This document shows positions 23,926-28,558 of a stretch of DNA of 64,000 nucleotides, one piece after another. A program made the translations under genes and the position numbers. The stretch spans positions 124,001 to 188,000 of the forward strand of contig NZ_JACGWS010000010.1 in NCBI RefSeq assembly GCF_014397005.1, read 5' to 3'. The notes under the pieces are model-generated. The model was not told the DNA's origin. It was given only the letters and a program-made list of their open reading frames with translations, and searched no databases. The stretch is from Kordia aestuariivivens. Its GTDB lineage: Bacteria > Bacteroidota > Bacteroidia > Flavobacteriales > Flavobacteriaceae. Each line of letters begins with the position of its first letter. Position 1 is the stretch's first letter.

Positions 23926-25557
23926 ATGTTATCTGTATCTAACTTATCCGTACAATTTGGAAAACGTGTATTATTTGACGAAGTAAATACGTCGTTTAAC
24001 CAAGGAAATTGTTATGGTGTCATCGGAGCTAATGGCGCTGGTAAATCTACATTTCTAAAAATTATATCAGGAAAGATGGACCCAACTTCGGGACATGTAC
24101 ATCTTGAGCCTGGCAAGCGAATGTCTGTATTAGAGCAAGATCACTATGCGTATGACGAATATACAGTGCTTGAAACTGTAATCATGGGAAACAAACCGTT
24201 GTTTACCATCAAAAAGGAAATGGATGATATCTATGCGAAAGAAGACTTTTCAGATAAAGATGGAGAACGCGTAGGAGAATTGCAAATAGAATTTGAAGAA
24301 ATGAACGGTTGGAATGCCGATTCGGATGCAGCAGCATTACTTTCAAACCTTGGAATCACTGAAGCAAATCATTACTCATTAATGGGCGATTTGGATGGAA
24401 AACAAAAAGTACGTGTATTATTAGCACAAGCACTTTTTGGAAATCCTGATGTATTAATCATGGATGAGCCAACAAACGACTTGGATTTTGAAACAATCGC
24501 TTGGCTAGAAAACTTCTTAGCAAACTATGACAACTGCGTAATTGTGGTTTCGCATGATAGACACTTCTTGGATTCGGTTTGCACACACATTTCAGATATT
24601 GATTTCTCTAAAATAAACCACTACAGTGGAAACTACACATTCTGGTATGAAAGTAGTCAACTTGCAGCTAGACAACGTGCACAACAAAATAAAAAATCGG
24701 AAGACAAAGCGAAGGAATTAGAAGAATTCATTCGACGATTTAGCGCCAACGTAGCAAAATCAAAGCAAGCAACGTCTCGTAAAAAAATGTTGGAACGTTT
24801 AAAAATAGAAGACATCAAGCCGTCAAGTCGTCGTTATCCTGCAATTATTTTTGACAGAGAACGCGAAGCTGGAGATCAAATTCTACAAGTAGAAGGATTA
24901 GAAGCAAGGGCTGAAGGCGAAACCTTATTTAAAAATGTAGACATCAACTTAGCGAAAGGCGATAAAGTAGCAATCATTTCAAAAAATTCACGTGCTACGA
25001 CAGCTTTCTATGAAATTATCAATGGAAATGCTGAAGCTAAAGCCGGAACTTATAAATGGGGAGTTACCACTTCACAAGCATACTTACCAGTTGATAACTC
25101 TCAATTCTTTGACAATGACATGTCATTAGTAGATTGGTTACGTCAATGGTCTAAAACAGAAGAAGAACGCGAAGAAGTATTTGTTCGTGGATTCTTAGGG
25201 AAAATGATTTTCAGCGGAGAAGAAGCTTTAAAAACGTGTAGAGTACTTTCTGGAGGAGAAAAAGTACGTTGTATGTTATCGCGTATGATGATGATTAGAG
25301 CAAACGTATTGATGTTAGATGAACCGACGAACCATTTAGACTTGGAAAGTATTACGGCGTTTAACAACTCGTTAAAAAACTTCAAAGGAACGGTATTGTT
25401 CACAACGCATGATCATGAGTTTGCACAAACAGTTGCGAACAGAATCATTGAGTTAACACCAACGGGAGTTATTGATAGATACTCAACGTTTGATGATTAT
25501 ATGAATGATAAAAAAATCAAAGAACAACGTGAAAAAATGTACGGAGTAAGCGTATAA
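23926..25557 (+). CDS. ABC-F family ATPase (YbiT-like)
   Basis: 543 residues with two ABC domains and no membrane segments, so a ribosome-associated translation factor rather than a transporter. Domain 1: Walker A GANGAGKST, signature near DGKQKVRVLLAQ, Walker B VLIMDEPTNDLD. The linker (about 240-310) is Lys/Arg-rich (KAKELEEFIRRFSANVAKSK), as in ABC-F proteins. Domain 2: its Walker A is degenerate (AIISKNSRATTAFY instead of GxxGxGKS), while the signature LSGGEKVR and Walker B VLMLDEPTNHLDL are intact. YbiT-type members are proposed to resolve stalled ribosomes. Confidence 0.93.
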   Translation: MLSVSNLSVQFGKRVLFDEVNTSFNQGNCYGVIGANGAGKSTFLKIISGKMDPTSGHVHLEPGKRMSVLEQDHYAYDEYTVLETVIMGNKPLFTIKKEMDDIYAKEDFSDKDGERVGELQIEFEEMNGWNADSDAAALLSNLGITEANHYSLMGDLDGKQKVRVLLAQALFGNPDVLIMDEPTNDLDFETIAWLENFLANYDNCVIVVSHDRHFLDSVCTHISDIDFSKINHYSGNYTFWYESSQLAARQRAQQNKKSEDKAKELEEFIRRFSANVAKSKQATSRKKMLERLKIEDIKPSSRRYPAIIFDREREAGDQILQVEGLEARAEGETLFKNVDINLAKGDKVAIISKNSRATTAFYEIINGNAEAKAGTYKWGVTTSQAYLPVDNSQFFDNDMSLVDWLRQWSKTEEEREEVFVRGFLGKMIFSGEEALKTCRVLSGGEKVRCMLSRMMMIRANVLMLDEPTNHLDLESITAFNNSLKNFKGTVLFTTHDHEFAQTVANRIIELTPTGVIDRYSTFDDYMNDKKIKEQREKMYGVSV

Positions 25558-25578
25558 TCTCGAAAATAGATAAAACAT

Positions 25579-25614
25579 AAAAGTCTCTTGAATTAATTTT
25601 TAAGGGACTTTTTT
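25579..25614. terminator. Terminator after the ABC-F gene
   Basis: AAAGTCTCTT / AAGGGACTTT stem with one G-T pair and a T-run on the plus strand; it also lies just past the stop of the minus-strand peptide gene at 25618 and may serve both. Confidence 0.8.
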
Positions 25615-25617
25615 CTA

Positions 25618-25770
25618 TTATGGAAGTCTGCAAAAACCATTATAAAACGCATACGGAAGATTGCAAGGTCTGCGATGACTTCGAAATCGTCGTGCGCCAC
25701 CTACAATGGTTTGTTGTTGTTGTTTATTGATCGGAATACACCCTTCTAAATTTGAAATTTTGTGTAACAT
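25618..25770 (-). CDS. Double-glycine leader peptide, candidate bacteriocin/RiPP precursor
   Basis: 50 residues. The leader MLHKISNLEGCIPINKQQQQ is followed by TIVGG, the pattern of Bacteroidota double-glycine leaders (ISxLEG, LxKxxQxxIxGG) cut by C39 peptidase-ABC exporters. The predicted core is 25 residues starting ARRFRSHRRPC and ending NGFCRLP: six arginines, one histidine, no acidic residue, and two cysteines ten residues apart. It could be disulfide-bonded or modified. No processing enzyme or exporter is nearby. It sits between two housekeeping genes, transcribed against the ABC-F gene. Start context is AT-rich without an SD site, as usual here. Confidence 0.65.
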   Translation of the reverse strand: MLHKISNLEGCIPINKQQQQTIVGGARRFRSHRRPCNLPYAFYNGFCRLP

Positions 25771-26040
25771 GATTTTTAAAGTTTTTTGGTTAAACCTAAA
25801 TTTAAAAAATCTAATTATCAGTTAGTTACGGTTTTTCCATATCATTTTTGATTGTTGGACCTACTTGGACAGTTTAGATGATTAGACTTGCTTAGATCGT
25901 TTAGATCGTTGGACTTACTTAGACAATTTAGATTTGTTAGAATAGACTCAACTCAGTCTAAAAATGATAGAAGTATTTTTTTGTCAGTTTGAACGCAGTC
26001 GAAAACAAGAAAAAATGAAAATAAAAAAGTTTCAAAACCA
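25771..26040. other. Intergenic stretch with degenerate TTAGA/TTGGAC repeats
   Basis: From about 25855 to 25950 short units such as GGACAGTTTAGATGATTAGAC and CTTAGATCGTTTAGATCGTTGG recur imperfectly. No gene is supported here. Confidence 0.5.
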
Positions 26041-26074
26041 AAAAAACGCTTTCTACAAGCGTAAAAAGCGTTTT
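26041..26074 (-). terminator. Terminator of pheT
   Basis: Stem AAAACGCTTT / AAAGCGTTTT (26043-26074) with a T-run on the minus strand, about 55 bp after the pheT stop. Confidence 0.8.
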
Positions 26075-26128
26075 CTTATATTTTCAAACTGCTACATTGT
26101 TACATTAAAACATTGCTACATTAAAAAA

Positions 26129-28558
26129 TTATCTCAATTCAGCACCGAGTTGTTTTTCAAAACTCTGCTGTAATTTATTCATAATTTTATCAATCTGTTT
26201 GTCAGTCAAAGTTTTGTGCTCATCTTGAAGTGTAAAACTCACGGCATAACTTTTTTTGCCTTTCGGCAGATTGTCTCCTTGGTACACATCAAACAAGTTC
26301 ACTTCTTTCAACAAACTGCGTTCGCTTTGCTTGGCAATAGTATCAATTTCAGCAAACGTAGTAGCCTCATCAATCAACAATGCAAAATCTCTACGAACTT
26401 TCGGGAATTTTGGAATTTCTTTAAACTTGATTTTTCTGTTTTTAGCAACTTCAATCACGTTATCCCAATTGAAATCGGCATACATTACTTCCTGTTTAAT
26501 ATCGAATGCTTTCAAAACATTTCGTTTCACAATTCCGAACTCTACCAGTTTTGTTTTTCCTAAACTTAATAGCAATCCTTCCGAAAACAAATCATTCTTA
26601 ATCGGCGATACTTTCAATGAATTCAGTCCTAAACGAGCCAAAACAGCCGTTACAATTCCTTTTGCGTAGAAAAAATCGCTAGATCTAGCTTTGCCTTCTC
26701 GCCAAGTTTCAGCAGTCGTATTTCCGGTGATTAACAATGACAAATGTTTATGTTCTTCACGTGTATCATCATAACCGTGATACGTTTTTCCAAATTCAAA
26801 AAACTTTAAATCACTTTGTCTTCTGTTGATATTATATGAAATAGCTTCCAATCCTGAAAATAATAACGATTGACGCATGACAGATAAATCGTTACTCAAC
26901 GGATTCAACATCGTAATATTATGTTCAGCTTTCAATTGCTCAGAAAGTTCTACATAAGTAGCGGTTGTCAATGAATTTGACATGATTTCATAAAAACCTT
27001 GTGAAACCAATTGCGTACCCACAACATCTTGCAATTTATAATCTTCGTAGCGTGATGTATTTGAAATCGACGTATGCCATTTCTCATCAAACTTGATATT
27101 GTTATAACCGTATACACGTAAAATTTCTTCAATAACATCAGCTTCACGTTGTACATCAACTCTGAATGCAGGAATTGTTAATCCTAATCCACCATCAGTA
27201 ACCGAATTAATTTTAATCTCTAAAGAAGATAAAATATTCTTAATGGTTTCTCTTGGCAATTCTTCTCCAATCAGTTTTGTAATGTTTTCGAAAGAAACAC
27301 GTACTTGAAAATCTTCAATTTTTGTTGGATAACTGTCGGTCACATCACTTGTAATTTCTCCACCAGCCAATTCTTGAATCAACAAGGCAGCTCTTTTTAG
27401 TGCATATTCCGTAGTATTTGGATCAATTCCACGCTCAAAACGGAAAGAAGCATCTGTATTCAACGCGTGACGTTTGGCAGTTTTACGTACCGAAACTGGA
27501 TTGAAATAAGCACTTTCTAAGAAAATATTCGTTGTTTGTTCGGTCACGCCAGATTTTAAACCTCCAAAAACACCTGCAATACACAAAGGTTTTTCAGCAT
27601 CGCAAATCATCAAATCATCTTCATGTAATTCGCGTTCGATTTCGTCTAACGTTGTAAACTTTGTACCTGTTTTTAAGGTTTTAACAATGATTTTATTTCC
27701 AGAAATATAATTCGCGTCAAATGCGTGTAACGGTTGTCCTAATTCGTGCAACACATAATTTGTTACATCGACTACATTATTTTTTGGAGTCAAACCAATC
27801 GCTTTCAAACGATGTTGTAGCCATTCAGGTGAAGGTTTTACTTGTATTCCAGAAATGGTAACACCACAATAACGCGGCGCTAAAGTTTTATCTTCAACTT
27901 CTACATCAACTTTTAGCGTACGATTATCGACTCTAAAACTACTTGTAGAAGGTGTAATTAATTCTATTTTAATATCTTGTTGTGACAATCCAGCTTTTAA
28001 ATCTCTGGCAACTCCGTAATGACTCATGGCGTCTGCTCTGTTTGGCGTTAAACCAATTTCGAACACTGCATCATTTTCAATATCAAAAACTTCGCTTGCA
28101 ACTGTTCCAGGAACAAGTGCTTCGTCTAAAACTAGAATTCCGTCATGACTTTCGCCTAAACCAAGTTCATCTTCGGCACAAATCATTCCGAGTGATTCTT
28201 CTCCACGGATTTTCCCTTTCTTGATTTTAAATCCTTTTCCTTCTGCATCGTATAGCGTAGTTCCAACAGTTGCCACAGGCACTTTTTGTCCGGCAGCCAC
28301 ATTTGTTGCACCACATACAATTTGTACAGGTTCACCCGAACCTAAATCTACAGTAGTAACTTTTAAGCGATCTGCATTTGGATGTTGTACACATGTTAAT
28401 ACATGTCCTACAACAATGCCTTCCAAGCCACCTTGAACAGATTCGTATTTTTCTATACCTTCAACCTCTAAACCTAAATCGGTTAGTAGTTCTCCAGTTT
28501 TTTTAGCATCCCAGTCGAGTTGAATAAATTGCTTTACCCAATTATATGATATTTTCAT
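26129..28558 (-). CDS. pheT: Phenylalanine-tRNA ligase beta subunit
   Basis: 809 residues. Charges tRNA-Phe as an alpha2-beta2 enzyme. N-terminal tRNA-binding OB domain (about 40-155, EGIVVGHVLTCVQHPNADRL), B3/B4 editing domain (about 210-390), B5 domain (about 405-480, RVSFENITKLIG), catalytic-like core (VIEEILRVYGYNNI, MLNPLSNDLSVMRQSLL) and ferredoxin-like anticodon-binding domain at the C-terminus (FPKVRRDFALLIDE, KSYAVSFTLQDEHKTLTD). pheS is not in the window, as is common when the subunits are unlinked in Bacteroidota. Confidence 0.97.
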   Translation of the reverse strand: MKISYNWVKQFIQLDWDAKKTGELLTDLGLEVEGIEKYESVQGGLEGIVVGHVLTCVQHPNADRLKVTTVDLGSGEPVQIVCGATNVAAGQKVPVATVGTTLYDAEGKGFKIKKGKIRGEESLGMICAEDELGLGESHDGILVLDEALVPGTVASEVFDIENDAVFEIGLTPNRADAMSHYGVARDLKAGLSQQDIKIELITPSTSSFRVDNRTLKVDVEVEDKTLAPRYCGVTISGIQVKPSPEWLQHRLKAIGLTPKNNVVDVTNYVLHELGQPLHAFDANYISGNKIIVKTLKTGTKFTTLDEIERELHEDDLMICDAEKPLCIAGVFGGLKSGVTEQTTNIFLESAYFNPVSVRKTAKRHALNTDASFRFERGIDPNTTEYALKRAALLIQELAGGEITSDVTDSYPTKIEDFQVRVSFENITKLIGEELPRETIKNILSSLEIKINSVTDGGLGLTIPAFRVDVQREADVIEEILRVYGYNNIKFDEKWHTSISNTSRYEDYKLQDVVGTQLVSQGFYEIMSNSLTTATYVELSEQLKAEHNITMLNPLSNDLSVMRQSLLFSGLEAISYNINRRQSDLKFFEFGKTYHGYDDTREEHKHLSLLITGNTTAETWREGKARSSDFFYAKGIVTAVLARLGLNSLKVSPIKNDLFSEGLLLSLGKTKLVEFGIVKRNVLKAFDIKQEVMYADFNWDNVIEVAKNRKIKFKEIPKFPKVRRDFALLIDEATTFAEIDTIAKQSERSLLKEVNLFDVYQGDNLPKGKKSYAVSFTLQDEHKTLTDKQIDKIMNKLQQSFEKQLGAELR

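What the first reader, a model, noticed from the sequence alone, without database searches (positions are those of the whole stretch)
25618..25770. Uncalled 50-residue double-glycine leader peptide with a cationic two-cysteine core
Seen: a complete small ORF on the minus strand whose N-terminus matches the Bacteroidota leader pattern (ISxLEG...INKQQQQTIVGG), followed by a 25-residue core with six Arg, no Asp/Glu and two Cys spaced by ten residues. Known: such leaders are removed by C39 peptidase/ABC exporters, and the products include bacteriocins and modified peptides. Inference: an orphan antimicrobial or signal precursor, exported by a transporter encoded elsewhere.
Basis: partly seen in the sequence, partly recalled or inferred. 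Interest (0 to 1): 0.75.

Follow-up and report, generated by a model that had tools for sequence, protein, structure and literature searches.

The report
Conserved Kordia secreted cysteine peptide gene
A tiny gene in a marine Kordia bacterium encodes what looks like a secreted, cysteine-stabilised mini-peptide, and it is one of dozens of scattered peptide genes that carry the same DNA sign just upstream, so they are probably switched on together.

Summary
The ORF is real and conserved. The 50-residue double-glycine precursor (25618-25770, minus) has orthologues in 10 of 10 other Kordia genomes searched, under purifying selection (pooled pN/pS 0.27). Nor is the gene isolated. A dyad, TAnGGnnnnnCCGTAA, lies 55 nt before its ATG; the genome holds 62 such sites (76 matches, control 5), and 43 of 62 lie 50-60 nt before a GG-leader ORF. 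The dyad is enriched in 11 of 11 Kordia genomes, though lost before this gene's orthologue in five. Two C39-ABC exporters are encoded elsewhere. Best reading: one disulfide-bonded mini-peptide of a dispersed, co-regulated secreted set, processed and exported in trans. Cleavage, export, disulfides and co-regulation are inferred; antimicrobial use is only the likeliest guess. It fails tests for bacteroidetocins and lanthipeptides. The regulon is more interesting than the single peptide.

The parts
25618..25770 (-). 50-aa GG-leader precursor ORF (stop codon 25618-25620)
   Evidence: orthologues in 10 of 10 other Kordia genomes; pooled pN/pS 0.27
25696..25770 (-). leader, residues 1-25, ending in GG; M1, L2, G10, K16, Q19 and GG invariant in 11 aligned Kordia leaders
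25621..25695 (-). core, residues 26-50, two Cys; the 12 other precursors at this locus have four Cys, C-x5-C-x5-C-x4-C
25826..25841 (-). dyad TATGGAAAAACCGTAA, 55 nt before the ATG; member of the TAnGGnnnnnCCGTAA class
25771..25825 (-). presumed core promoter and 5' UTR between dyad and ATG; start site not mapped
   Evidence: inference
25579..25612 (.). terminator-like stem-loop between the convergent peptide and ABC-F genes; the scan scored it on + only, it may serve both
   Evidence: 2 found in 901 bases, shuffles 0.3
26046..26062 (-). terminator-like stem-loop after pheT, so the peptide gene is probably its own transcription unit
23926..25557 (+). ABC-F type ATPase gene, conserved flank (name from the sequence by eye; no family search was run on it)
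26129..28558 (-). pheT, phenylalanyl-tRNA synthetase beta, conserved flank (name by eye; no family search was run on it)

Best explanation
The ORF is a genuine single-gene unit for a small secreted peptide of the genus Kordia. Its 25-residue leader is probably cut after GG by the peptidase domain of a C39-ABC exporter encoded elsewhere, and the 25-residue core then leaves the cell and folds as a disulfide-stabilised mini-peptide. The ancestral core has two disulfides, most likely Cys1-Cys3 and Cys2-Cys4; the window copy lost Cys1 and Cys3 together and would keep only Cys2-Cys4. Transcription is probably controlled, most likely activated, by an unidentified dimeric regulator binding TAnGGnnnnnCCGTAA 50-60 nt before the ATG. 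43 GG-leader ORFs scattered through this genome have that arrangement, so the peptide is one item of a co-regulated dispersed set. The most likely use is antagonism of other microbes (about 0.45), then signalling or interaction with algae. Shown: ORF, conservation, selection, four-Cys relatives, dyad and its spacing, existence of exporters. Inferred: cleavage, export, disulfides, regulator, activity.
For: Orthologues in 10 of 10 other Kordia genomes. Within the 1.5 kb flanks held, ABC-F in 10 of 11 genomes, pheT in 9 of 11, both in 8 of 11. pN/pS 0.27 pooled over 12 copies. Four Cys at 5-5-4 in 12 of 12 other precursors. Cores of 117 leader ORFs are 13.4% Cys and 99 of 117 hold an even number (random mean 58.5, maximum 78 in 5000 simulations); 35 of 45 after collapsing similar cores. 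Dyad: 12 of 30 own leader ORFs score >=11 of 14, all at 51-58 nt, shuffles 0.27%; 41 of 87 leader ORFs of six other genomes, 40 of the 41 at 51-62 nt, shuffles 0.41%, reversed motif 0 of 87; 43 of 62 genomic sites 50-60 nt before a GG-leader ORF, 42 by rule and one by eye. 11 of 11 Kordia have a C39 match in an open frame of 736 or more residues (ABC domains checked only for the two of this genome). A VKOR-C39 protein gene lies about 180 nt behind a dyad-bearing GG-leader gene.
Against: No expression, mass spectrometry or activity data. No exporter, immunity or regulator gene was recognised beside the ORF. The dyad is lost or degraded before the orthologue in 5 of 11 genomes: G001, G002, G003, G005, G010. 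14 of 62 sites have no suitable ORF, and 52 of 117 leader ORFs have no dyad of score 9 or more at 48-64 nt. Within the window alone a 3-mismatch scan gives 11 matches against 10 expected; the case rests on genome-wide position. No dyad of score >=11 stands before the two C39-ABC genes. The window precursor has three Cys in all and has lost half of the core's conserved Cys. The 1-3/2-4 pairing rests on one event and on non-significant structure matches.
Confidence: 0.72

Rival explanations
1. The window copy is a decaying member: the family is functional in the genus, but this copy is drifting after losing two of four cysteines.
For: Cys1 and Cys3 are lost only here; three Cys in the precursor; pN/pS to the nearest copy (G004a) 0.42 raw against 0.25 pooled among the other 11 copies; the second, ABC-F-proximal copy seen in G004 and G006 is absent here.
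Against: ORF, GG, P35, C36, P39, Y40, Y43, G45, C47 and the RLP end are kept, and so are dyad and spacing; the two lost Cys are the ones that would pair with each other. Few codons, so the pN/pS difference is weak.
Confidence: 0.17
2. A secreted signal peptide sensed by the producer or its kin, not a weapon.
For: GG-leader peptides exported by C39-ABC proteins include pheromones in Gram-positive bacteria (general knowledge); the core ends are well conserved between species, which is unusual for a fast-evolving weapon.
Against: No sensor gene recognised nearby; dozens of unlike cores share the dyad, which suits an arsenal better than one signal.
Confidence: 0.2
3. The core is enzymatically modified (lanthipeptide or radical-SAM thioether peptide).
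For: The genome holds one LanB-type dehydratase and six radical-SAM/SPASM matches; one dyad-bearing paralogue of G004 scores 19.8 bits to TIGR04149, below its cut-off of 25.
Against: Cores of G004b, G006a and G007 have no Ser or Thr, so lanthionine is impossible there; none of the seven matches lies on the peptide's contig; the window precursor matches neither family.
Confidence: 0.08
4. Chance ORF in the spacer between ABC-F and pheT.
For: Short, in an AT-rich spacer.
Against: Present in 11 of 11 Kordia genomes under purifying selection.
Confidence: 0.01

Closest known systems
Bacteroidetocins (Coyne et al. 2019, PMC6671954; passages seen)
   Same: Bacteroidota GG-leader peptides with cysteines, evidence of disulfides, and a C39-type ABC exporter
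   Different: Their leaders are 15-16 aa and mature peptides 42-48 aa, in a cluster with exporter, membrane protein and mostly a thiol oxidoreductase; here leader 25 aa, core 25 aa, no cluster
Bacteroidota leader families in NCBIfam (TIGR04149; NF038153 class I lanthipeptide; NF047798 bacteriocin-like protein)
   Same: Short precursors with a leader ending in GG; some Kordia paralogues come near these models but below cut-off
   Different: The window precursor and its K. periserrulae orthologue match none of them
Scytovirin repeats (PDB 2jmv) and small cystine-dense peptides, two of them scorpion venom peptides (6av8, 2lds, 2kyj)
   Same: C-x5-C-x5-C-x4/5-C spacing; scytovirin pairs Cys20-Cys32 and Cys26-Cys38, that is 1-3 and 2-4 (PMC3407925, passages); a C-terminal hairpin in the model
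   Different: No match is significant (E 3.4; E 2.1-4.5); other hosts and context

Membership tests
GG-leader (C39-processed) peptides | N-terminal leader ending in GG before a distinct core | tested here: met
   GG invariant in the aligned orthologues
GG-leader (C39-processed) peptides | C39-ABC exporter in the genome | tested here: met
   two in this genome; a long C39 frame in 11 of 11 Kordia
GG-leader (C39-processed) peptides | actual cleavage after GG and export | not testable with these tools
   needs peptidomics
Bacteroidetocins | leader of 15-16 residues | tested here: not met
   25 residues against PMC6671954 (passages)
Bacteroidetocins | exporter and membrane protein genes close by, mostly a thiol oxidoreductase | tested here: not met
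   neighbours are ABC-F and pheT
Bacteroidetocins | sequence similarity to bacteroidetocins | not tested
   no bacteroidetocin sequence was fetched
Class I lanthipeptide (NF038153) | leader model match | tested here: not met
Class I lanthipeptide (NF038153) | Ser or Thr in the core for lanthionine | tested here: not met
   three orthologous cores (G004b, G006a, G007) have none; the window core has one Ser
TIGR04149 radical-SAM targets | model match and adjacent radical-SAM enzyme | tested here: not met
Two-disulfide hairpin or scytovirin-like fold | significant structural or sequence match | tested here: inconclusive
   whole model pLDDT 61.8, core blocks about 80 with a hairpin; no significant match
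Kordia dyad regulon (defined here) | TAnGGnnnnnCCGTAA 50-60 nt before the ATG of a GG-leader ORF | tested here: met
   window copy at 55 nt

The most novel reading that the evidence does not exclude
Kordia carries a dispersed peptide arsenal: dozens of single-gene loci for unlike disulfide mini-peptides, each with its own promoter but all under one dyad-binding regulator, sharing a few trans-acting exporters and a VKOR-C39 disulfide former. This 'one regulator, many orphan peptides' organisation would differ from the usual clustered bacteriocin operon.
Probability: 0.45. Interest if true: 0.75.

Novelty: new variant of a known kind. Interest (0 to 1): 0.5.

Why it matters
Orphan GG-leader peptides are easily passed over because no exporter or modifying enzyme lies nearby. 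A shared upstream dyad ties 43 of them in one genome into a single testable regulon. It offers a way to find such genes by their promoter, and through the unknown regulator a way to switch on the whole set in a genus that includes the algicidal K. algicida.

Tried and rejected
Chance ORF: rejected. Bacteroidetocin and lanthipeptide membership: rejected. Pfam: no match to the window precursor. Rfam on 25400-26300: three matches, all far below their gathering scores, read as chance. Dyad before the C39-ABC genes in L076 and L077: none at score >=11 in a fitting place. Structure: alignment A2 with the K. periserrulae orthologue first, mean pLDDT 61.8, pTM 0.35, leader below 50, core blocks 81 and 79; best PDB matches have E of 2.1 or more, so no evidence. 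The window copy itself was not modelled.

Literature: keyword searches listed no paper on this dyad or on Kordia GG-leader peptides. The listings were cut (15 of 825, 15 of 47, 6 of 6, 0, 1 of 1, 8 of 11), and only open-licence papers are held. Passages only were seen of PMC6671954, PMC9034974 (no disulfide pairing found), PMC3407925, PMC7477175 (antiSMASH clusters including lanthipeptide; no 'bacteriocin'), PMC10565126 (no 'bacteriocin', 'lanthipeptide' or 'double-glycine') and PMC10352776.

Corrections on the way: one search translated minus-strand loci on the wrong strand; one search mended this. One search looked only on one side of each site; two searches looked on both.

Rows dropped or not seen: weak matches outside Kordia (16 of 69 genomes at E <= 1) were not aligned. 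Of 37 own leader matches the 30 with loci were used. The list was cut by the tool; I took 87 rows from six of the ten other genomes. G006b is not in the pN/pS set of 12 copies, and one codon of the G004a copy was left out there to keep the frames aligned. The GG-leader rule is my own and looked for an ATG 30-75 nt from the site; L252 was added by eye. The list was cut after part of G004; its counts per genome are complete.

Full report

It is a gene. A six-frame search of 80 genomes found orthologues in 10 of 10 other same-genus genomes (E 8.2e-19 to 1.2e-12); among 69 genomes of other genera 16 had matches at E <= 1, the best 0.0126 with stops inside. Within the 1.5 kb flanks held, the ABC-F gene was seen in 10 of 11 genomes and pheT in 9 of 11, both in 8 of 11. 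Pooled pN/pS over 12 orthologous copies is 0.27 (leader 0.32, core 0.24).

The core looks different once relatives are seen. All 12 other precursors at this locus have four cysteines with spacing 5-5-4; the window copy has Arg and Phe in place of Cys1 and Cys3. Net charge (R+K minus D+E) is +6 here, -1 to +4 elsewhere, and the others have one to five acidic residues. The cationic two-Cys look is therefore private to this copy. In two genomes (G004, G006) two precursors were seen here. The 75 bases upstream of the window copy are 84% identical to G004a and 77% to G006b, the pheT-proximal copies, and at most 68% to the others, so this species seems to have kept the pheT-proximal type; only 60 bases separate its ORF from the ABC-F gene, so no second copy is there.

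Disulfides rather than other chemistry. Cores of 117 leader ORFs (30 own, 87 from six other genomes) are 13.4% cysteine and 99 of 117 have an even number, against a random mean of 58.5 and a maximum of 78 in 5000 simulations; 35 of 45 after collapsing similar cores. Three orthologous cores have no Ser or Thr, which excludes lanthionine there. Losing Cys1 and Cys3 together fits a 1-3/2-4 pairing, though a random pair of losses would fit some pairing always and this one in one of three cases. Scytovirin, the only PDB sequence listed up to E 10 (E 3.4, not significant), has nearly the same spacing and pairs Cys20-Cys32 and Cys26-Cys38, that is 1-3 and 2-4 (PMC3407925, passages). The predicted model of the four-Cys orthologue is poor as a whole (pLDDT 61.8, pTM 0.35) but has a C-terminal hairpin in a core at about 80; its best PDB matches are small cystine-dense peptides with E of 2.1 or more, so the fold is only suggested.

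Export in trans. The genome has two C39-ABC proteins, at C16 and C1, each with an HlyD-like gene beside it (HlyD by eye), and a third C39 match in a 517-residue protein with a VKOR domain. All 11 Kordia genomes have a C39 match in a frame of 736 residues or more, and a frame of 515-542 residues with a weak C39 match (domains were checked only in the window genome). In the window genome the VKOR-C39 gene starts about 180 nt behind a GG-leader gene that has the dyad; a hairpin followed by a T-run lies between them by eye, so they are probably separate units. In G004 and G009 a dyad lies 421 and 709 nt before the start of the corresponding C39 match; the DNA between was not read.

The regulon. 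Comparing upstream regions showed a shared dyad. With the consensus TTACGGTnnnACCGTAA, 12 of 30 own leader ORFs score at least 11 of 14, all at 51-58 nt before the ATG; shuffles reach 11 in 0.27%. Of 87 leader ORFs from six other genomes, of which only the two G004 copies of this gene had helped to shape the consensus, 41 score at least 11 and 40 of these lie at 51-62 nt; shuffles 0.41%, reversed motif 0 of 87. The looser pattern TAnGGnnnnnCCGTAA occurs 76 times in the window genome against 5 for the control, at 62 distinct places. Of these, 42 by rule and one more by eye (43 of 62) lie 50-60 nt before a GG-leader ORF, although an ATG was allowed at 30-75 nt; five more lie 54-60 nt before longer proteins with a signal-peptide-like start, four of them paralogues of about 480 residues; 14 have nothing suitable. 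Both the NLxG...Q..GG leader type and the MKKxxLKSLxLNKKxIS type are included. All 11 Kordia genomes are enriched (27-76 matches against 4-13). A stricter form occurs 17 times here; of 148 genomes of other genera in the family 47 have any match and the most is 7. The fixed spacing suggests an activator site just upstream of the core promoter (inference).

Against this reading: before the orthologue itself the dyad is clear in 6 of 11 genomes and lost or degraded in five (G001, G002, G003, G005, G010), so it is not indispensable for this gene. Within the window alone a scan with up to three mismatches gives 11 matches where 10 are expected. Of 117 leader ORFs 52 have no site of score 9 or more at 48-64 nt. 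No dyad was found before the two C39-ABC genes, and no regulator is known.

Seven loci of the dyad-less group were tested against Rfam; all seven have a DUF805b RNA match before the leader ORF, but only two of the eight matches reach the gathering score.

Assessment. The peptide is a new member of the broad kind 'GG-leader secreted peptide'; the genus-wide dispersed dyad regulon is the surprising part and makes it a new variant. Cleavage, export, disulfides and the regulator are inferred; the activity is unknown, microbial antagonism being the likeliest.

Noticed in passing
window 25826-25841 and 61 further sites in the genome (loci L196-L265): Dyad TAnGGnnnnnCCGTAA at a fixed distance before many GG-leader genes; regulator unknown.
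   Followed up: yes
L202, L203, L205, L228 (C1:199701, C1:201442, C1:203257, C4:169955): Four paralogous secreted-type proteins of about 480 residues (start like MKKVTLIF...FAQ) also have the dyad 56-60 nt before their ATG.
   Followed up: no
L078 9586-11139 (+), L259: 517-residue VKOR-C39 protein gene about 180 nt behind a dyad-bearing GG-leader gene; possible disulfide-forming partner of the peptides.
   Followed up: partly
L140, L157, L161, L171, L173, L174, L181: DUF805b RNA (RF02914) matches of 30.8-37 bits (gathering score 35.6; 2 of 8 reach it) before GG-leader genes that lack the dyad.
   Followed up: partly
L098, L121, L142, L162, L169, L192: GG-leader cores with a CGxGNCCNTAGWC stretch that recalls hevein domains (resemblance recalled; one of them, L098, gave no NCBIfam match).
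   Followed up: no
L076 and L271 (contig C16): LanB-type dehydratase about 10 kb from a C39-ABC exporter with an HlyD-like gene and several GG-leader peptides.
   Followed up: no
window 25865-25965: Degenerate TTAGAT-rich repeats in the spacer between pheT and the peptide gene (by eye).
   Followed up: no
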